From assembly GCA_026461075.1 (NCBI GenBank), contig JAPJNH010000033.1, forward strand, positions 1 through 35,638: a stretch of 35,638 bases of DNA, in the 5' to 3' direction. Positions 4,054 through 13,078 of the stretch are shown here, in pieces; position 1 is the first letter of the stretch, and every line of letters starts with the position of its first letter. The notes beneath the pieces were generated by a model. That model saw only the letters and a program-made list of their open reading frames with translations, did no database searches and had not been told where the DNA came from. The position numbers and the translations under genes are program-made. The stretch is from Chitinophagales bacterium (GTDB taxonomy: Bacteria; Bacteroidota; Bacteroidia; Chitinophagales; CAIODY01).

Positions 4054-6915
4054 ATGAAGATAAACCAACAGCAAATAGAAAAATTGTTCCCTTTCTTTAT
4101 TCAATTGAATAAAAAAGGAGAATGCTTAGCTGTAGGTCCTTCGCTCACAAAATTGGTTAATATCCCAATTGCAAAGCCTTGTTCGTCTTTTCTCAAAATA
4201 CATCAGCCGCAATTAGGCGACTTCTCATTGTTAGAGTATTGGAATGATCAAGATGGGAAACAAGCTTCTATACAAATTGAACAGTATATATTGCTTGGCT
4301 CTTGGAATATAATTGATGATTCAGTCTTTTTTCTAGGAGTCCCACAATTCGATTCCATCCAGTCATTCCATACGAGTGCTTTACAACAAAGTGATTTTGC
4401 TCCGCATGATACAAGTGTTCATTGGGTGAAGCAGTTCGCCGCTGATTTTGAATACAATAATGATTTACAAGAATTGTTTGCCATTCTAAAAAATCAAAGA
4501 GAGCAAATAAAGGAGGCTCAATTACAGCTTCGTAAGAATAATGATCAATTATTAGCAATCCTTAATAACCTTTCTTCTTGTGTTATTTTAGAAGACGGTA
4601 AGCGTAATGTACTTACCTTAAATAGGCCTTTCTGCGACTTGTTAAACATAAAAATCTCACCTACTAATTTCACGGGATTAGCAAATGAAGCACTCGCTGA
4701 ATACTTCGCTCCATTTCTTGGAGGTTCGCAGGCATGGAACCATCTAGCTAATCCAATTTTGGATGGCTTTAAACCAATACTTGATTTTGAAATGCCGACT
4801 TGGTCGGATGGTAAAATCGTTAGTTTAAGTTATGTGCCAATCCGTTTCGATGATAAATCGATCAATCATCTCTGGATTTTTAAAGATCGTACCATCCAAA
4901 GAAATGCCGAAAAAGTCCTTCGCTTGCGAGAGGAACGCTATCGTAATATTATTGCTAACATGAATCTTGGCTTGTTAGAGGTTGATTTGGAAGAAAGAAT
5001 TCTTTCTACCAACAAAAGCTTCTGCGAAATGAGTGGTTATTCGGAAGGAGAACTTATTGGAGTGAAAGCACCAGAGCTTTTCATTCAAGATAACCTCACC
5101 AAAGGTGAACACAAGGCCATCTTAGAACGTCGTACTAATCTTCAATCTGATGCTTACCAATTAAAAGTTAAAAATAAATTCAAACAACCACGTTGGTGGT
5201 TGGTGAGTGGTGCTCCTTTATTGAATGATCAAGGACAAGTAATCGGGTCTATTGGTATCCATCTAGATATCACCTCTCAAAAAGAAACAGAAAGCGAATT
5301 AATCGTTGCTCGCGATAGCGCACGTGAATCATCCAAAGCTAAGGAGTCCTTCTTAGCGAATATGAGCCATGAAATTCGTACCCCAATGAATGCGATTCTT
5401 GGGATGAGTAAACAATTAAGTAAAACAAAACTCAATAAAGAACAAGCGTTCTTTAACAGCACTATCGTAACGGCAGCCGATAATTTGTTGGTTATCCTTA
5501 ACGATATTTTAGATATCTCTAAAATTGAAGCAGGCAAACTTAGCGTCGAACATATTCCATTCAACTTAAAGGACCTTGTCACTAAGTTGTATAATCTCAT
5601 GGAGATGAAGGCTAAGGAGAAAGCCCTTCGTATCAACCTTCATTTTGATGTCGATCTACCGAATAATCTAATAGGTGATCCATATCGCTTAAATCAAATT
5701 CTTTATAATCTGGTTGGGAATGCGATTAAGTTTACTGATAAGGGGCATATTAATATTAATTGCAAACTGATGGAGGATGCTGTTGATAATTGTAGAGTCG
5801 ATATTTCAGTGAAGGATACTGGAATTGGAATGGATGAGAACTTTGCAACGCACCTATTTGAGAAATTCTCACAAGAGGATCGTTCTATTACTCGACGTTT
5901 CGGGGGTACCGGATTAGGATTGTCTATCTCCAAACAGTTGTCAGAATTAATGGGAGGTAGTATTAGCTTGCAGAGTAAAAAAGGGGAAGGGTCAACCTTT
6001 ACCTTGCATCTACCATTTGTGAAGTCAGATGTGGAAAGTATGCAGCTGGAAGAAAAGTCAACCGTGCTTTCTCCAATTGCTCTTTTAGGTAAACGGATAT
6101 TGTTAGCAGAAGATAATGAGCTAAATAGAATAGTGGCTGTTACCACCTTACAATCTTTTGGTGCAGAAGTTATAGAAGCTGAAAATGGTTTACGCGCTAT
6201 CGATTTGCTAAAATTTCGTGGACATTTTGATATTGTATTAATGGATTTAAGCATGCCAGAAATGGACGGTTTAATGGCGACACGTACTATTCGTCAAGAA
6301 CTTAAAATGAATATTCCGATTATAGCACTTACAGCTAATGCTATACTTGGAGAAAAACAAAAGTGCTTGGATGAAGGAATGGATGATTATATCTCTAAGC
6401 CTTTTGAAGAACTAGATCTTGTTCGGATGATTTTGAAGTATACCAATGAAAATAGTATTGTTGAAAATAATGATACAGCAGCGCTAGTCTCGAATACAAA
6501 CAGCGACGACGCCCTTAGCTTGCTGCGTGGGATGTTCTTGCCTGCTGATGAGCCAATACCTGTATTTGCGAATGTCGCTCCACAATATTCTTATGCTCGA
6601 CTAGAAAAAATGGGGAATGGCAATAAAGAATTAGTACGTAAGATTCGTGAAGTGTTCTTAAAGCAAATGCCAAGTTCATTAAGTGAACTAGAACTCGCGG
6701 TACGACAGCGCGACTACGACCAAGTATATATGGTGGCACATCGCTCTAAGTCGAGCCTAGTTAGTTTCTCTGCTGAAGAAGCGAAAGAACTCGCTAATCG
6801 AATGGAAGTCATTGCGAAAGAAAAAGGATCATTCGATGAAATCGATGCATGCTTTAATCAGTTTGCGGCAATTGTCAATAATATCCTGCTTGCGATGGAA
6901 CAAGATGTGGTTTAA
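4054..6915 (+). CDS. hybrid histidine kinase with HNOBA-like input, REC and intact HPt
   Basis: A 953-residue hybrid kinase. Residues 10-130 look like the heme-NO-binding-associated (HNOBA) PAS-like domain of H-NOX partners: FPFFIQL near 12-18, VGPSLTKL at 27-34, and FFLGVP followed by LQQSDFAPHDT at 110-120, which resembles the family's 'LxLSDIPLHDATRD' stretch. A coiled coil (about 140-165), a PAS-like segment (165-280) and a clear PAS domain (290-410) follow. HisKA has H439; the HATPase has DTGIG at 588-592 and GGTGLGL at 617-623; the receiver has D731 and K782. The C-terminal HPt (about 845-945) keeps its histidine, H896 in VAHRSKSS. The gene starts directly after the previous stop. Its stop overlaps the stop of the convergent repressor gene in the shared bases TTAA. 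The HNOBA assignment is less certain than the kinase call; no H-NOX gene lies in the window. Confidence 0.88.
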   Translation: MKINQQQIEKLFPFFIQLNKKGECLAVGPSLTKLVNIPIAKPCSSFLKIHQPQLGDFSLLEYWNDQDGKQASIQIEQYILLGSWNIIDDSVFFLGVPQFDSIQSFHTSALQQSDFAPHDTSVHWVKQFAADFEYNNDLQELFAILKNQREQIKEAQLQLRKNNDQLLAILNNLSSCVILEDGKRNVLTLNRPFCDLLNIKISPTNFTGLANEALAEYFAPFLGGSQAWNHLANPILDGFKPILDFEMPTWSDGKIVSLSYVPIRFDDKSINHLWIFKDRTIQRNAEKVLRLREERYRNIIANMNLGLLEVDLEERILSTNKSFCEMSGYSEGELIGVKAPELFIQDNLTKGEHKAILERRTNLQSDAYQLKVKNKFKQPRWWLVSGAPLLNDQGQVIGSIGIHLDITSQKETESELIVARDSARESSKAKESFLANMSHEIRTPMNAILGMSKQLSKTKLNKEQAFFNSTIVTAADNLLVILNDILDISKIEAGKLSVEHIPFNLKDLVTKLYNLMEMKAKEKALRINLHFDVDLPNNLIGDPYRLNQILYNLVGNAIKFTDKGHININCKLMEDAVDNCRVDISVKDTGIGMDENFATHLFEKFSQEDRSITRRFGGTGLGLSISKQLSELMGGSISLQSKKGEGSTFTLHLPFVKSDVESMQLEEKSTVLSPIALLGKRILLAEDNELNRIVAVTTLQSFGAEVIEAENGLRAIDLLKFRGHFDIVLMDLSMPEMDGLMATRTIRQELKMNIPIIALTANAILGEKQKCLDEGMDDYISKPFEELDLVRMILKYTNENSIVENNDTAALVSNTNSDDALSLLRGMFLPADEPIPVFANVAPQYSYARLEKMGNGNKELVRKIREVFLKQMPSSLSELELAVRQRDYDQVYMVAHRSKSSLVSFSAEEAKELANRMEVIAKEKGSFDEIDACFNQFAAIVNNILLAMEQDVV

Positions 6916-7721
6916 TCCTTCATCTTTACCACAACCGACTGTACCTCTTTCAAGATATTCGCAATACGCTCTTTCGTTAGTCCGCCCTCTGGCAACTCTG
7001 TGCTGATATAACTGATAAACTTCCATACTTCCTGCACCTCGCCAATCTTTACTACATAATCTTGATAGATCGGATTCAAAGAACGCATAATCAACTGCTG
7101 TTTTTGCTTGATTTCGTTTAATAGAATCTTGAAGACAAGCCCATCCTGCTTCGTCAATACAACATAAGCCATCTCATCTTTAATATCGTTCCAATTCTCT
7201 ACATATTCTGCCAGTACATACGACTTATCCGGAATTGGCAACATGCTATCTCCATCAATTTGGAACATACGATACTTGCGGTAGCTAGTCGTCAATACAG
7301 GCATTTGGAACTTCGGTAGAGAGCCGATAAACTCAGGGTCGAAAAAGCCCATCTGGTAGCCAGCTTTGGCACGTAAACCCACGACTTCGATATTGTCATT
7401 GTTCTCGCGATCGACTGTAGTAGCTAATACACGAAGCTTAGTGCCTGTAACGAAGACGTCATTCCCCGATTGCAATTCGCGCAACTTCCAAGCCGATAGC
7501 TGGGATAAGTCGTGCTTCAATAAAGCATCGATACTCAAGTTGAAATATTCCGCTACCGTCACTAAATCCTCCGGTGGCATATTCGAACGAATCCCGTTCT
7601 CATAACTGTTTAATTTGCCTCGGCTCATCCCTAATGCAGCCGCTAAATCTTCTTGGCTCTTGCCTTTTTGATTGCGCAATACTTTCATATTGCTCGCTAA
7701 ATAGATAATGCGTTCGCTCAT
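6912..7721 (-). CDS. S24-family (LexA/cI-like) transcriptional repressor
   Basis: A 269-residue repressor joining an XRE helix-turn-helix (about 8-70) to a C-terminal S24 peptidase domain. Seen in the sequence are the cleavage dipeptide A120-G121 in KAGY, the nucleophile S159 in DGDSML and the lysine K198 in VFKIL. Known S24 repressors cut themselves when RecA filaments form on damaged DNA, which lifts repression. The ATG at 7721 (MSERIIYL) was chosen because a longer in-frame start at 7784 would run through the promoter and a presumed operator. The gene is divergent from dinB-dnaE across about 100 bases containing two TGATAC-type inverted repeats, so it likely controls both itself and the polymerases. 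It is not a classical LexA, whose DNA-binding domain is a different winged helix. The 3' end meets the second kinase tail to tail. Confidence 0.9.
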   Translation of the reverse strand: MSERIIYLASNMKVLRNQKGKSQEDLAAALGMSRGKLNSYENGIRSNMPPEDLVTVAEYFNLSIDALLKHDLSQLSAWKLRELQSGNDVFVTGTKLRVLATTVDRENNDNIEVVGLRAKAGYQMGFFDPEFIGSLPKFQMPVLTTSYRKYRMFQIDGDSMLPIPDKSYVLAEYVENWNDIKDEMAYVVLTKQDGLVFKILLNEIKQKQQLIMRSLNPIYQDYVVKIGEVQEVWKFISYISTELPEGGLTKERIANILKEVQSVVVKMKD

Positions 7722-7753: not shown

Positions 7754-7785
7754 CAAAAATAGTGATACTTTGTGTAACATCCAAA
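7754..7785 (-). promoter_or_regulatory. promoter of the S24 repressor gene
   Basis: Read on the minus strand, TTTG (7785-7782) and TATTTTTG (7761-7754) are separated by 20 bases, an exact match to the Bacteroidota -33/-7 arrangement. The predicted start lies about 25 bases before the ATG at 7721. One operator-like repeat (7763-7779) fills the spacer and the other (7783-7805) covers the -33 box, which implies autorepression. Confidence 0.65.
7763..7779. promoter_or_regulatory. putative operator 1 (imperfect inverted repeat)
   Basis: TGATAC-N5-GTAACA is an imperfect inverted repeat with the same half-site and spacing as operator 2. It lies between the -33 and -7 boxes of the repressor promoter. 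Its centre is 23 bp from that of operator 2, about two helical turns, which would suit cooperative dimer binding. Confidence 0.6.
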
Positions 7786-7805
7786 TGATACTAAGTGTAT
7801 CATTT
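7783..7805. promoter_or_regulatory. putative operator 2 (perfect inverted repeat)
   Basis: A perfect inverted repeat with 9-base arms, AAATGATAC-N5-GTATCATTT. It overlaps the -33 box of the repressor gene and lies 17 bases before the dinB start codon, where a bound repressor would block transcription into dinB-dnaE. A loose -7 box, TATCATTTG (one base longer than consensus), overlaps its right arm and may belong to dinB. Confidence 0.7.
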
Positions 7806-7822
7806 GAAAATAAATCCTTTTT

Positions 7823-9037
7823 ATGACAGCTACACGAACCATTGCCCACATGGATCTCGATACCTTTTTTGTGTCGGTAGAACGCTTGCAAAACTCCGCC
7901 CTTATCGGTAAGCCGGTATTGGTTGGCGGCGCTAGCGACCGTGGGGTGGTAGCTTCTTGTAGTTACGAAGCGCGTAGTTATGGCATACATTCTGCCATGC
8001 CCATGAAAATGGCGCGACAGCTCTGTCCAGAAGCAATTATCGTTCGTGGCGACCATGAACGTTATAGCTATTATTCCAATGTCGTTTCAGAAATTATTGA
8101 AGAAGCGGTACCGCTCTATGAAAAAATGTCTATCGACGAATTCTATATGGACCTCTCCGGAATGGATCGCTTCTTTGGGTCTTATAAGTGGGCTACCGAA
8201 CTCCGTCAACGCATTATTCGCGAAAGTGGATTGCCCTTGTCTTTTGCCATGTCGATTAATAAAACAGTCGCTAAAATAGGAACAGGGCAAGCGAAGCCCA
8301 ATGGACAGCTGCAAATTGAATATGGAAAAGAGAAAGATTTTTTAGCCCCCTTATCCGTTCGTAAAATTCCAATGGTAGGCGAGAAGACCTATCAAATTTT
8401 AAAAAGTATGGGCATTGAAAAAATCGAAACGATTCAGCAAATGCCATCGGAGCTAATGCAACAAGTTTTGGGCGAAAACGGACTGGCAATTTGGCGGAAG
8501 GCGAATGCCTTGGATGATACGCCCGTATTGCCCTATTGTGAACAGCAGTCATTATCCACTGAAACTACTTTCGAGCGAGATACGATGGACTTGACCCATT
8601 TACACCGTGTATTGATTCATCAAATCGAACAGCTCACCTTTCAGCTTCGCTCGAGCGATCGGCTAACGGGTTGTATCACTATCAAACTACGCTATTCTGA
8701 TTTCAATACGCATACTATGCAATTGCGCATTCCGTATACCGCCCTTGATCACGTTCTGATTACGAAAGCTAAGGAGCTCTTTGCGAAACTCTATACACAA
8801 CGCTTACAGATTCGTTTAATCGGCGTCCGTTTTAGTCATTTGATTCAGGGGGCTTATCAATTTGATTTATTTGATGATACCAAAGAAAAAGTATTACTCT
8901 ATGCCGCCATGGATAAGCTCCGCAAGCGCTTTGGTAAGGATACGATACAAAGAGCGGGAGGGGTTGATTTTAAAGATGTAGCAGAAGTAAGAGATTCTCG
9001 TAAAACAAAACTATTGAATAAAGGGAAGAAGAAATGA
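7823..9037 (+). CDS. dinB: Y-family DNA polymerase (DinB/Pol IV type)
   Basis: A 404-residue translesion polymerase. The palm motifs are visible: D11 in HMDLDTFF and D105-E106 in SIDEFYMD, the metal-binding carboxylates of Y-family enzymes. The little-finger domain occupies about 240-345. A sliding-clamp binding motif, QFDLF at 346-350, is followed by a lysine-rich tail. It is the first gene of the inducible pair and shares four bases (ATGA) with dnaE, so the two are probably translationally coupled. In ImuB-DnaE2 systems the Y-family member is catalytically dead; here the catalytic acids are intact, so this looks like an active DinB rather than an ImuB. It is the only complete gene of the window ending in TGA. 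Confidence 0.93.
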   Translation: MTATRTIAHMDLDTFFVSVERLQNSALIGKPVLVGGASDRGVVASCSYEARSYGIHSAMPMKMARQLCPEAIIVRGDHERYSYYSNVVSEIIEEAVPLYEKMSIDEFYMDLSGMDRFFGSYKWATELRQRIIRESGLPLSFAMSINKTVAKIGTGQAKPNGQLQIEYGKEKDFLAPLSVRKIPMVGEKTYQILKSMGIEKIETIQQMPSELMQQVLGENGLAIWRKANALDDTPVLPYCEQQSLSTETTFERDTMDLTHLHRVLIHQIEQLTFQLRSSDRLTGCITIKLRYSDFNTHTMQLRIPYTALDHVLITKAKELFAKLYTQRLQIRLIGVRFSHLIQGAYQFDLFDDTKEKVLLYAAMDKLRKRFGKDTIQRAGGVDFKDVAEVRDSRKTKLLNKGKKK

Positions 9038-11976
9038 TCTTGGCGCATACGGCATATAGTTTTCATTACGGCGTATTGAGTACGGAAGAAATGCTCGAGC
9101 ACTTAGCTACTAACGGCTATACTCGATTTATTTTAGCTGACATCAATAATACCTCTGCTGTGTTGGATGCCTTGCGCCTAGCGCCTTTGAAAGGCTTAAA
9201 GCCCATTGTCGGAGTTGATTTTCGTAACGGCGTTCAACAACGATTCATCGCCATCGCTAAAAATAATGCAGGGTATCGTCGTATCAATGAATGCCTGAGT
9301 GCCTGCTTACATGCACAAGCATCCGTTCCCGAACAAGCGCCTGATCTCGGAGACGATGTAATTATCATCTATCCTTTAGCTGCGTATAAGTCGCAAACAC
9401 TCGGTCCCAATTGCTATATCGGCATTGCGCCGCATGAAGTGCAAAGCTTGGCCTTCTCTGCTGCAAAGCACCTCTTAAATCATTGCTTGGCACTGCCTGT
9501 TTTTAGCTTCGTGAACCGCGCTCACTTTGTGTCGCATCAATTATTGCGTGCAATTGATCAGAACATCGTTCTAAGCAAGTTGCAACGTCAAGATGTCGGA
9601 CGTGCCGATGAAAGTATTCTGCCAATCGAACAGATGAAGAAAGCCTATGAATGGCATCCGAAGCTGTGGACCAATGCAGAACGTATTTTTGAAGCTTGTG
9701 AGCTGTCATTTGAATACGGAAAGTTTGCAAACAAAAACCGAAAATGCTATACACGAAGTACGGTGGAAGATTGGCGCCTGCTCCGGCAGTTATGCGAAAT
9801 CGGATTGACAGAACGCTATCCTAAAGCAAATCGCGATATCCGCCAACGAATGGAGAAAGAGCTGCAAATCATCGGTCAGATGGAGTTTGCAGCCTATTTT
9901 TTAATCAACTGGGACCTGATTCAATATGCCCGAAGACGCAACTTTTATTATGTCGGCAGAGGTAGCGGCGCTAATAGCTTAGTCGCCTATCTGCTGCGTA
10001 TTACCGACGTCGATCCCATCGATCTAGATTTGTATTTTGAACGATTTATCAATCCGTATCGGACTAATCCGCCCGATTTCGATATGGACTTTTCCTGGAC
10101 CGACCGCGAAGATATTACGCAGTACATTTTTAATCGTTATGGCGATACACATACTGCTTTACTCGGCGCCTATAATACCTTTCAGCACGATGCGGTGATT
10201 CGTGAAATCGGAAAAGTAATGGGAATGCCTGCTCCAGAAATAGATCGTTTACAACGACTGCAAGATCTTTCGCAAGCCGATAGTCTGGGACAGCGCGTCT
10301 TGCGTTATAGCGCGATGCTCCAGGGATTACCCAGTCATCTTAGTATACACTCTAGCGGAATTCTTATTTCTGAAGAACCGATTTCGCAATACAGCGCCAC
10401 CTTCCTTCCTCCGAAAGGCTTTCCAACGACACAGTTTAGTATGCTTGAAGCAGAAGACATCGGCCTGTATAAGTTTGATATCTTAAGTCAACGTGGACTC
10501 GCGAAAATTAAAGAGGCGGTCGAGATTGTAGAACGAGAAGAGAAGGTGCGTTTGGATATTCATGATATGCCAAAGATTAAGAACGACCCTGTGGTAAAGC
10601 GTTTGCTAAAGGAAGGGGAGTGTATCGGTTGTTTTTATATCGAGTCGCCAGCTATGCGGATGTTGTTGACGAAGCTACGTGCAGATGATTATATCCGATT
10701 AGTTGCCGCCAGTTCTATTATACGCCCAGGAGTTTCTAAAAGTGGGATGATGGCAGAATATATCCGCCGTTATCGCAACGCCGACTTGCGTGAAAAAGCG
10801 CGTGAAGCACTACCGGAGTTGTATGATCTTTTACAAGAAACCTATGGCGTGATGGTCTATCAAGAGGATGTGATTAAAGTCGCGCATTATCTGGCAGGAT
10901 TGTCTTTGGCGGAAGCAGATTATTTGCGAAGAGGCATGACTTGGAAGTTTAAAAAGAGAAATGAATTCAACCAAGTGCATCAAAAGTTTTTGGAATCTTG
11001 CCGGGCTAAAGGCTTTTCCGAAAAGACGGTACAAGACTTATGGCATCAAATAGAGAGCTTTGCTAATTATGCTTTTTCTAAGGCGCATTCGGCTAGTTAT
11101 GCCGTGGAGAGTTTTCAAGCACTCTATATCAAAGCCTATTATCCTTTGGCCTATATGGCGGCGACCTTAAATCACGGAGGCGGATTTTATAAACCAGAGT
11201 TTTATGTACATGAGGCCCGTCGCTTTGGTGCAGATATACAAGCGCCTTGCGTGAATGAGAGCGATGCAGGTGTGCGTTTGAAAGGCAAACAGCTGTTCAT
11301 TGGCTTGAGTTGGATACAAGGTATCGAAAGCCCTTTTGTAGAATCTATTCTCCGCAATCGAAGTACAGAAGGCGCGTTTCAGCATTTAGCGGATTTTGTA
11401 GAGCGGCTGAATCCGGATATCAACCAGCTGCGTTTATTGATTAGAATTGGCGCTTTCCGCTTTACCCATTTAGCCAATAAGCAACTTTTGTGGGAAGCAC
11501 ATCTTTTAGTCGGGCAGCGGAAACGACAAGGTTCTGGACCTTTATTGTTCAGTACCGAGATTAGGCAAATTCAACTGCCGGCACTTACGGTAGACCCTTT
11601 GGAGGAGGCCTATACACAAATCGAGTTATTGGGCTTCCCGCTATGTTCTCCTTATTTGTTGGTAGCAGAAGATATCCCGAGTCCCTTACTAGCATCCGAT
11701 TTGAAACTGAATCTGTATCGCGAGGTGGAGCTAGTTGGCTATTTGGTAGCGTATAAAACAACCTATACACAGCAAGGGGATAAAATGTGCTTCGGTACCT
11801 TTCTCGACTTACACGGTCATTGGCTAGATACAGTTCATTTCCCCGCTGCTACGAAAGATTTTCCATTCCGCGGACCAGGGGTCTATCATTTAAAGGGAAG
11901 GGTAGAAGAAGAGTTTGATTTCTTTTATTTGAATGTCAGTTTTATGCGTCGCTTGAATAGTAAAAACGTAGGATAG
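9034..11976 (+). CDS. dnaE: second DNA polymerase III alpha subunit (short, error-prone type)
   Basis: A 980-residue C-family polymerase, shorter than the roughly 1160 residues of a replicative DnaE. The N-terminal PHP domain (about 1-210) begins directly at MILAHTAYS and keeps only H5 of the usual HxH metal motif, so PHP activity is doubtful. The polymerase aspartates are present: D348 and D350 in PPDFDMDF and D482 in KFDIL. The conserved finger stretch NYAFSKAHSASYAV lies near 678-691. Helix-hairpin-helix-like sequence follows at about 752-810 and an OB fold at about 890-975. The start overlaps dinB by four bases. Pairing with a Y-family polymerase under an S24 repressor suggests a lesion-bypass enzyme; the replicative DnaE should be encoded elsewhere. 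Confidence 0.9.
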   Translation: MILAHTAYSFHYGVLSTEEMLEHLATNGYTRFILADINNTSAVLDALRLAPLKGLKPIVGVDFRNGVQQRFIAIAKNNAGYRRINECLSACLHAQASVPEQAPDLGDDVIIIYPLAAYKSQTLGPNCYIGIAPHEVQSLAFSAAKHLLNHCLALPVFSFVNRAHFVSHQLLRAIDQNIVLSKLQRQDVGRADESILPIEQMKKAYEWHPKLWTNAERIFEACELSFEYGKFANKNRKCYTRSTVEDWRLLRQLCEIGLTERYPKANRDIRQRMEKELQIIGQMEFAAYFLINWDLIQYARRRNFYYVGRGSGANSLVAYLLRITDVDPIDLDLYFERFINPYRTNPPDFDMDFSWTDREDITQYIFNRYGDTHTALLGAYNTFQHDAVIREIGKVMGMPAPEIDRLQRLQDLSQADSLGQRVLRYSAMLQGLPSHLSIHSSGILISEEPISQYSATFLPPKGFPTTQFSMLEAEDIGLYKFDILSQRGLAKIKEAVEIVEREEKVRLDIHDMPKIKNDPVVKRLLKEGECIGCFYIESPAMRMLLTKLRADDYIRLVAASSIIRPGVSKSGMMAEYIRRYRNADLREKAREALPELYDLLQETYGVMVYQEDVIKVAHYLAGLSLAEADYLRRGMTWKFKKRNEFNQVHQKFLESCRAKGFSEKTVQDLWHQIESFANYAFSKAHSASYAVESFQALYIKAYYPLAYMAATLNHGGGFYKPEFYVHEARRFGADIQAPCVNESDAGVRLKGKQLFIGLSWIQGIESPFVESILRNRSTEGAFQHLADFVERLNPDINQLRLLIRIGAFRFTHLANKQLLWEAHLLVGQRKRQGSGPLLFSTEIRQIQLPALTVDPLEEAYTQIELLGFPLCSPYLLVAEDIPSPLLASDLKLNLYREVELVGYLVAYKTTYTQQGDKMCFGTFLDLHGHWLDTVHFPAATKDFPFRGPGVYHLKGRVEEEFDFFYLNVSFMRRLNSKNVG

Positions 11977-12032: not shown

Positions 12033-12491
12033 ATGAACAAAAAATCTATTCAATTACAGCAGCTAAATCAAAAAATGATGCGGATGGCGGTTTTGCGGAA
12101 AATGCCCATGCCAACGCATGGTTGGGTGAAAGCAATCCGTGGTGCAATAGGAATGTCGATGCAACAATTGGGGAATCGACTCTCGATTTCTAAGCAAGCA
12201 GTACTAGATTTAGAAAAGCGTGAGCAGACGGGTGCAATAACAATCAAAGCGCTGAAAGAAGTGGCGCAGGCCATGGATATGGAATTGGTTTATGGCTTTG
12301 TTCCGAAAGACGGCACTTTAGAAGCTTTGGTTGAACGAAGAGCAACAGAAATTGCAAGGGAAATTGTATTGCGTACTGCCACTACGATGCAGTTAGAGGA
12401 TCAAGCAAATTCAAAAAAAAGAATTGCCAAAGCAATAAAAGAGCGAGCGAATGCGTTATTACATGCAAAGTCTAAACTATTATGGGATTAA
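12033..12491 (+). CDS. mobile mystery protein A (XRE-type regulator)
   Basis: A 152-residue protein matching the 'mobile mystery protein A' pattern: a basic N terminus with the conserved PTHGWVKAIRGAIGMS stretch (27-42), a Cro/cI-type helix-turn-helix (about 32-85, SISKQAVLDLEKRE) and a helical C-terminal half. In this family the gene is found next to mobile mystery protein B, a Fic enzyme, in variable genome regions, and the arrangement resembles an antitoxin-toxin pair. Here it precedes and overlaps the Fic gene by ten bases. The two identical direct repeats just upstream suggest autoregulation. Its role as an antitoxin is inference. Confidence 0.85.
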   Translation: MNKKSIQLQQLNQKMMRMAVLRKMPMPTHGWVKAIRGAIGMSMQQLGNRLSISKQAVLDLEKREQTGAITIKALKEVAQAMDMELVYGFVPKDGTLEALVERRATEIAREIVLRTATTMQLEDQANSKKRIAKAIKERANALLHAKSKLLWD

Positions 12492-13078
12492 TGGATACTA
12501 GCTCATTCGGTCAGACTCCTTTGGATGCGGATGAGCGAGAAGGCTTGCTGATTGCGAGTATAACGACTAATGGAGAGCTGGATGAATTTGAGCAACACAA
12601 CATTGAGCATGCCTTGCAATGGCTGATGGGACGGTCTTTTACAGCGGATGTTGTTTTTAGTGAAGCATTTATTCGCTTGGTGCACAAACGAATGTTTGGC
12701 GAGGTTTGGGTATGGGCAGGGGAGTTTCGAAAGACGAATAAAAACTTCGGCGTTGATAAATGGGAAATTATTACCGAACTCCGTAAGCTAATCGATGATG
12801 CTAAATTTTGGCACGCGAATGCAATTTATCCTCCAGATGAATTAGCGCTACGGTTTAAGCATCGTATTGTACAGATTCATTGTTTTGCCAATGGTAACGG
12901 GCGACATAGTCGTTTGATGGCGGATATCATTATTGAAAAATTGTACCAAATGCCCGCCTTCACTTGGGGACGTAAGTTTCAACAGAAAGATGTTCTAATC
13001 CGAAACTTGTATTTAGACGCAATCAAGTTGGCTGACAATGGAGATTTTAGCGCGTTGCTGAAATTCGCTCGGTCTTAG
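12482..13078 (+). CDS. mobile mystery protein B (Fic-domain protein)
   Basis: A 198-residue Fic-family protein, a class that usually transfers AMP or other phosphate-containing groups to target proteins. The active-site motif is HCFANGNGRHSR at 133-144: catalytic H133, the GNGR anion-binding loop and R144 are present, while the usual Asp/Glu two residues before the second Gly of the motif is N137. The N-terminal stretch QTPLDADEREGLL (about 10-22) is typical of the family. An alternative ATG at 12491 would join the upstream stop as TAATG and remove three residues. With its HTH partner it forms a compact two-gene accessory module between the mutagenesis cassette and galE. Confidence 0.87.
   Translation: MGLMDTSSFGQTPLDADEREGLLIASITTNGELDEFEQHNIEHALQWLMGRSFTADVVFSEAFIRLVHKRMFGEVWVWAGEFRKTNKNFGVDKWEIITELRKLIDDAKFWHANAIYPPDELALRFKHRIVQIHCFANGNGRHSRLMADIIIEKLYQMPAFTWGRKFQQKDVLIRNLYLDAIKLADNGDFSALLKFARS

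What the first reader, a model, noticed from the sequence alone, without database searches (positions are those of the whole stretch)
7754..7805. Two-operator switch laid over the repressor promoter
A perfect TGATAC/GTATCA repeat with 9-base arms and a second, weaker copy lie 23 bp apart centre to centre. They cover the -33 box and the spacer of an exact TTTG-N20-TATTTTTG promoter for the S24 repressor, and the strong site is next to dinB. This layout predicts autorepression with cooperative binding and stronger repression at the dinB side, as in phage-type switches. The operator differs from classical LexA boxes.
Basis: partly seen in the sequence, partly recalled or inferred. Interest (0 to 1): 0.6.

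Follow-up and report, generated by a model that had tools for sequence, protein, structure and literature searches.

The report
Paired operators of Bacteroidota SOS repressor
Two short mirror-image DNA sites between a LexA-like repressor gene and a mutagenic polymerase gene are very probably the repressor's own binding sites; they use a previously unlisted recognition word, and their 23-base spacing, the same as in phage lambda's switch, recurs in distant Bacteroidota.

Summary
TGATACTAAGTGTATCA (7786-7802; perfect arms are 10 bp) and TGATACTTTGTGTAACA (7763-7779, 11/12) lie 23 bp apart, centre to centre. They overlap or abut an exact TTTG-N20-TATTTTTG promoter of an S24 repressor divergent from dinB-dnaE. 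The only other perfect TGATAC-N5-GTATCA in the 2.5 Mb genome is about 55 bp upstream of recA. Other near-matches examined lie inside genes. Four relatives keep the pair at exactly 23 bp; in one, dinB sits elsewhere with its own pair.

The protein fits the 'non-canonical LexA' of Bacteroidetes (PMC8565304): CI-like HTH, invariant Ala-Gly and Ser/Lys, extra C-terminal helix, no canonical LexA in the genome. Its motif is not one that paper names. It is a local variant (recognition-helix T36 to K36) of TGATTA-N5-TAATCA, found across a well-supported sister clade that includes records titled Bacteroidales, where the paper reported the regulators absent. There, 37 of 38 detected site pairs are 23 or 24 bp apart, the spacing annotated in lambda OR, and the upstream site usually merges into the -7 box. 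Binding, cooperativity and damage induction are inferred, not shown. Stronger repression of dinB is not supported.

The parts
7786..7802 (.). Operator 1 (strong): TGATAC-TAAGT-GTATCA, perfect 6-bp core arms; palindrome extends to 7782-7806
   Evidence: core arms unchanged in G002 while spacer and part of the outer arms differ
7763..7779 (.). Operator 2 (weak): TGATAC-TTTGT-GTAACA, 11 of 12; lies in the spacer of the repressor promoter
   Evidence: the GTTAC half-site and 23-bp spacing recur in G002-G005
7754..7785 (-). Repressor promoter TTTG-N20-TATTTTTG (Bacteroidota -33/-7 type)
   Evidence: exact match; kept in G002; prediction only, start site not mapped
6912..7721 (-). S24 repressor (269 aa): CI-type HTH, Ala120-Gly121 cleavage site, Ser159/Lys198 dyad, C-terminal helix; non-canonical LexA type
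7823..9037 (+). dinB-type Y-family DNA polymerase (404 aa), divergent from the repressor
9034..11976 (+). dnaE-type DNA polymerase III alpha paralogue, overlapping dinB by 4 bases (likely operon)

Best explanation
The two repeats are a tandem operator for the adjacent S24 repressor, a non-canonical LexA of the Bacteroidota. Repressor dimers bind both 17-bp sites, probably cooperatively, and block the repressor promoter and, in the same intergenic region, the dinB-dnaE promoter. In this genus they also bind a single site at recA. After DNA damage, RecA filaments would trigger self-cleavage of the repressor at Ala120-Gly121, releasing the mutagenic polymerases, recA and the repressor itself. Shown by sequence: the sites, spacing, promoter overlap, conservation, recA site and catalytic residues. 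Inferred: binding, cooperativity, cleavage and damage induction.
For: Only two intergenic locations with the motif were found in the genome: the window pair and recA (about 55 bp upstream of the gene); all other near-matches examined are inside genes. The recA site keeps its core arms in G002 while 2 of 5 spacer bases differ. Zero differences in the 24 operator-arm columns between G000 and G002 against 14 of 88 elsewhere. Tandem pattern in 299 genomes of the order: found in G000 and G002-G005 at repressor or dinB, plus one site in G007 with no SOS gene nearby; control 0. G003 has separate repressor and dinB loci, each with a 23-bp pair. Sister clade: 37 of 38 site pairs at 23 or 24 bp, in 12 of 18 clusters; 31 of 38 against 0.1 in shuffles. 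26 of 32 TGATTA pairs have the -7 box TAnnTTTG sharing its TG with the upstream operator. Cleavage and dyad residues practically invariant in 103 homologues. No canonical LexA. Relatives in the same family of repressors bind N5-spaced palindromes at their own promoters and are mitomycin-inducible (PMC8565304).
Against: No binding or expression data for this clade. G001, with a 77% identical repressor, has neither the operators, nor a detectable dinB, nor a recA site (genome 89% complete). recA lacks the site in G003 and G004, and the SRAP genes of this family lack it, so the regulon is very small. The dinB promoter could not be placed. In the sister clade 25 of 83 rows have no recognisable TGAT-type pair.
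Confidence: 0.85

Rival explanations
1. The repeats are operators of the adjacent repressor, but the two sites act independently, for example one per divergent promoter, with no cooperativity.
For: Some homologues have one recognisable site only, and recA in the window genome has a single site.
Against: Pairs at 23 bp also stand before genes with a single promoter: dinB of G003 and an SRAP gene in G063 (L202). Spacing is fixed at 23/24 bp although distance to the start codon varies widely. One Marinilabiliaceae region has two pairs, one per gene (L205).
Confidence: 0.25
2. The repressor works through the pair but answers a signal other than DNA damage, such as a small ligand or another stress.
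For: Small regulon; no expression data for this clade.
Against: Invariant Ala-Gly and Ser/Lys, targets are dinB-dnaE, recA and SRAP, and relatives are mitomycin-inducible (PMC8565304).
Confidence: 0.08
3. The palindrome acts as an RNA hairpin (terminator or leader structure) and not as a DNA operator.
For: As RNA the 7780-7822 segment folds at -12 kcal/mol, z -5.9.
Against: No T-run directly follows it; part of the outer arms is lost in G002 while the 17-bp core arms are kept; the weak site and the 23-bp spacing are unexplained; the same motif stands at recA.
Confidence: 0.03
4. Chance palindromes in an AT-rich divergent region.
For: Loose matches are common (23 against 15.7 expected in the window at 3 mismatches).
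Against: Conservation of the pair, 0 control hits in 299 genomes, and the other perfect genome-wide match is at recA.
Confidence: 0.01

Closest known systems
Non-canonical LexA proteins of the Bacteroidetes (Sanchez-Osuna et al. 2021, PMC8565304)
   Same: S24 repressor with CI-like HTH, Ala-Gly cleavage site, Ser/Lys dyad and extra C-terminal helix; N5-spaced palindromic operators at its own gene; control of error-prone polymerases and recA; in Elizabethkingia also divergent from an error-prone polymerase gene; more than one site per promoter was noted there.
   Different: Reported motifs are GGA-N5-TCC, CTAA-N5-TTAG and TTAC-N5-GTAA; here TGATAC-N5-GTATCA, and TGATTA/TGATTG-N5 in the sister clade. 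That paper found no regulator in Bacteroidales, and its main text does not mention cooperativity or a fixed spacing between sites.
Phage lambda CI and right operator OR
   Same: 17-bp operators at 23 and 24 bp between neighbours (annotated starts 37951, 37974 and 37998 in J02459); divergent promoters overlapped by operators; S24 repressor with CI-type HTH; folds like a lambda-hybrid repressor and LexA.
   Different: Two sites and not three; no cro gene opposite but a DNA polymerase operon; operator half-site TGATAC with N5; no viral relative found in IMG/VR.
Canonical LexA SOS system
   Same: Autoregulated S24 repressor controlling translesion polymerases and recA.
   Different: No winged-helix LexA domain (PF01726 absent in 6 genomes); unrelated operator.

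Membership tests
Non-canonical LexA of Bacteroidetes (PMC8565304) | N-terminal CI-type HTH (PF01381) | tested here: met
   PF01381 E 4e-12 at residues 13-66
Non-canonical LexA of Bacteroidetes (PMC8565304) | C-terminal S24 peptidase domain | tested here: met
   PF00717 E 6e-5, 23.2 bits against cut-off 23.3, just under; fold matches LexA and lambda CI C-terminal domains (moderate model, pLDDT 75.6)
Non-canonical LexA of Bacteroidetes (PMC8565304) | Ala-Gly cleavage site and Ser/Lys dyad | tested here: met
   A120, S159, K198 in 103 of 103 and G121 in 102 of 103 homologues
Non-canonical LexA of Bacteroidetes (PMC8565304) | Additional C-terminal helix | tested here: met
   helix 250-268 in the model
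Non-canonical LexA of Bacteroidetes (PMC8565304) | N5-spaced palindrome in its own promoter and at SOS genes | tested here: met
   window pair and recA; dinB in G003
Non-canonical LexA of Bacteroidetes (PMC8565304) | Motif GGA-N5-TCC or CTAA-N5-TTAG (the two named groups) | tested here: not met
   TGATAC-N5-GTATCA; own clade split from CTAA-type rows at 99/94 support. So it is not a member of the CTAA group; placement against the GGA group was not tested
Non-canonical LexA of Bacteroidetes (PMC8565304) | Specific DNA binding and damage induction | not testable with these tools
   needs gel shift and RT-qPCR
Canonical LexA | Winged-helix LexA DNA-binding domain (PF01726) | tested here: not met
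   absent in 6 genomes including the window's
Lambda-type CI switch | 17-bp operators spaced 23/24 bp | tested here: met
Lambda-type CI switch | Located in a phage with an opposing cro gene | tested here: not met
   opposite gene is dinB; no viral relatives found
Lambda-type CI switch | Cooperative binding of dimers | not testable with these tools
   spacing only suggests it

The most novel reading that the evidence does not exclude
A third, undescribed class of Bacteroidota SOS repressors, present also in environmental Bacteroidales thought to lack them, recognises TGATTA/TGATTG-N5 operators (locally TGATAC after a T36K change in the recognition helix). It typically works through two operators with lambda OR geometry, so an SOS repressor would have kept the cooperative operator architecture of a phage switch.
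Probability: 0.5. Interest if true: 0.68.

Novelty: new variant of a known kind. Interest (0 to 1): 0.52.

Why it matters
The Bacteroidota SOS repressor is proposed to descend from phage repressors. A fixed pair of 17-bp operators at 23/24 bp, flush with the -7 box, gives that idea a concrete mechanistic feature, cooperative binding in the manner of CI, which the main text of the 2021 paper does not discuss. The motif class extends predicted SOS control to uncultured Chitinophagales and Bacteroidales lineages, and the TGATTA-to-TGATAC change with T36K is a compact, testable case of how SOS repressors change their binding word.

Tried and rejected
Near-matches to the motif elsewhere in the genomes were rejected as coding chance, many in repeated Asp-Thr codons of secreted adhesin-like proteins. 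A regulated SRAP gene in the window's family was looked for and not found. Phage homologues were looked for and not found. A dinB promoter of the -33/-7 type was not found with fewer than 2 mismatches. Sequence search of the single protein against solved structures gave nothing; the alignment profile found only HTH domains. RNA hairpin reading considered and rejected. The tandem TGATTA search over 395 class genomes also hit places without a known SOS gene (15 forward hits against 3 in the control), so single hits there are not claimed. A CTAA-type 23-bp spacing was seen in a few rows only (L034, L035, L038) and is not claimed as general.

Full report
What is there. Between a minus-strand S24 repressor gene (6912-7721) and a plus-strand dinB-dnaE pair (7823-9037, 9034-11976) lie two related palindromes. 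The strong one has core TGATAC-TAAGT-GTATCA at 7786-7802 and perfect 10-bp arms at 7782-7806; nothing else in the window comes within 3 mismatches of the full palindrome and shuffles give none. The weak one is TGATACTTTGTGTAACA at 7763-7779, 11 of 12 core positions. Centres are 23 bp apart. An exact TTTG-N20-TATTTTTG promoter on the minus strand runs from 7785 to 7754; its spacer holds the weak site and its TTTG is the outer arm of the strong site.

Genome-wide. In the organism's own 2.5 Mb assembly, perfect TGATAC-N5-GTATCA occurs twice: here and about 55 bp upstream of recA (L002 annotated, RecA confirmed). Relaxed patterns (one mismatch, or GWTAC-N5-GTAWC) give further hits, but every one examined lies inside a gene, and the GWTAC-N5-GTAWC count does not exceed its control (10 against 15). 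In G002 (same genus) the recA site is also perfect, with two of five spacer bases changed and the arms kept; G001, G003 and G004 have no recA site. No canonical LexA domain was found in six genomes of the family.

Conservation of the pair. G002, G003, G004 and G005 keep both sites upstream of the repressor at 23 bp, always with a GTTAC half in the weak site. Between G000 and G002 the 24 arm columns do not differ, while 14 of 88 other columns do; part of the outer arm of the strong palindrome is among the changed columns, so the functional core is probably the 17 bp. In G003 dinB is on another contig than the repressor and has its own pair, TGATACTTTACGTAACT and TGATACTAAATGTAGCA, 23 bp apart and ending 20 bp before the predicted dinB start. 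A search for the tandem with up to 3 mismatches in 299 genomes of the order hit these loci and one unrelated place in G007; the reversed control hit nothing. In G003-G005 an exact promoter TTTG-N18/19-TACCTTTG has its final TTTG inside the start of the strong operator (TTTGATAC), so promoter and operator overlap in a different register from the window.

The protein. The repressor has a CI-type HTH and an S24 domain, Ala120-Gly121, Ser159 and Lys198 practically invariant among 103 homologues, and a C-terminal helix at 250-268 in the AlphaFold2 model (mean pLDDT 75.6, linker poorly modelled). Fold search matches a lambda-186 hybrid repressor, LexA and lambda CI C-terminal domains and, for the HTH, SinR. 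These are the features of the non-canonical LexA proteins of the Bacteroidetes, which bind N5-spaced palindromes at their own promoters and at SOS genes and are induced by mitomycin C (PMC8565304). In Elizabethkingia one such regulator is divergent from an error-prone polymerase gene, the same layout as here.

What is new against that paper. Its main text names GGA-N5-TCC, CTAA-N5-TTAG and a diverged TTAC-N5-GTAA, says that motif discovery gave only the first two, and reports the regulators absent from Bacteroidales. A scan of genome contigs with the window's repressor family returned 80 homologues from records titled Chitinophagales, Bacteroidetes and Bacteroidales, nearly all MAGs. In a tree of 103 proteins a 20-row clade holding all CTAA-type promoters splits with 99/94 support from an 83-row clade, and the window's family forms a 100/99 subclade of the latter. 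In the 83-row clade the promoters carry TGATTA-N5-TAATCA or TGATTG-N5-CAATCA. At least 10 of 12 matches to TGATTA occur in 38 of 103 promoters against 3.4 in shuffles. Supplementary tables of the paper could not be read, so a listing of this motif there cannot be excluded; no paper in the library holds TGATTA, TAATCA and LexA together.

Fixed spacing. With one site at 10 of 12 or better and a second at 9 or better within 17-60 bp, 37 of 38 pairs are 23 (34) or 24 (3) bp apart, in 12 of 18 clusters at 65% identity. In the first test the second-best site was at 23 or 24 bp in 31 of 38 promoters against 0.1 in shuffles. The rows are related, so these are not independent events, but the 12 clusters and the separate genes with pairs (dinB in G003, SRAP in G063, two pairs in one Marinilabiliaceae region) argue against simple inheritance of one sequence. 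In 26 of 32 TGATTA pairs the upstream operator shares its TG with a -7 box TAnnTTTG, so a bound dimer would sit on the -7 element. The lambda record annotates its right operators as 17-bp elements starting at 37951, 37974 and 37998: 23 and 24 bp apart.

Specificity change. At recognition-helix position 36, TGATTA/TGATTG promoters go with Thr (51 of 52 rows) and the window's family has Lys in all six rows; the one other Lys36 row, L019 on a long separate branch, has weak TGTTAC/CGATAC-like sites 23 bp apart. This is a correlation confounded with descent except for L019.

Mechanism, step by step. Shown from sequence: sites, spacing, promoter overlap, conservation, recA site, catalytic residues. 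Established for relatives (PMC8565304): binding to such palindromes, binding to their own promoters, mitomycin induction. Inferred here: binding to TGATAC, cooperative occupation, RecA-triggered cleavage, and which side is repressed more.

Verdict. A real, conserved tandem operator of a known kind of SOS repressor, with a motif class and a fixed lambda-like spacing that the main text of the defining paper does not describe.

Noticed in passing
window 12033-13078 (+): An HTH/Fic gene pair, mobile mystery proteins A and B (TIGR02612, TIGR02613), follows dnaE on the same strand 57 bp downstream. Whether it is co-regulated with the cassette was not tested.
   Followed up: partly
G000:C19:3945-4940 (L094): A second dinB-dnaE cassette, 61% identical in DinB, is cut by the contig end; it may be a paralogue or contamination (assembly 4% contaminated).
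   Followed up: partly
G001:C25 (L062): A 77% identical repressor stands without dinB nearby and without operators; its recA also lacks the site. It may be an orphan repressor after loss of the cassette.
   Followed up: partly
L202 (G063) 1501-1540: A TGATTA pair at 23 bp lies at the start of an SRAP gene, suggesting that this clade controls SRAP in some genomes; L193 (Paludibacter record) has SRAP divergent from the repressor.
   Followed up: partly
L221 (G519): A near-perfect TGATTA tandem lies directly upstream of a YifB/ComM-like AAA+ ATPase gene in a genome of another family; possible new regulon member or chance.
   Followed up: no
L145, L150, L189: Repressor upstream regions hold a CCCCCTCTCTTT-N5-AAAGAGAGGGGG palindrome, twice in L150; probably an interspersed repeat.
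   Followed up: no
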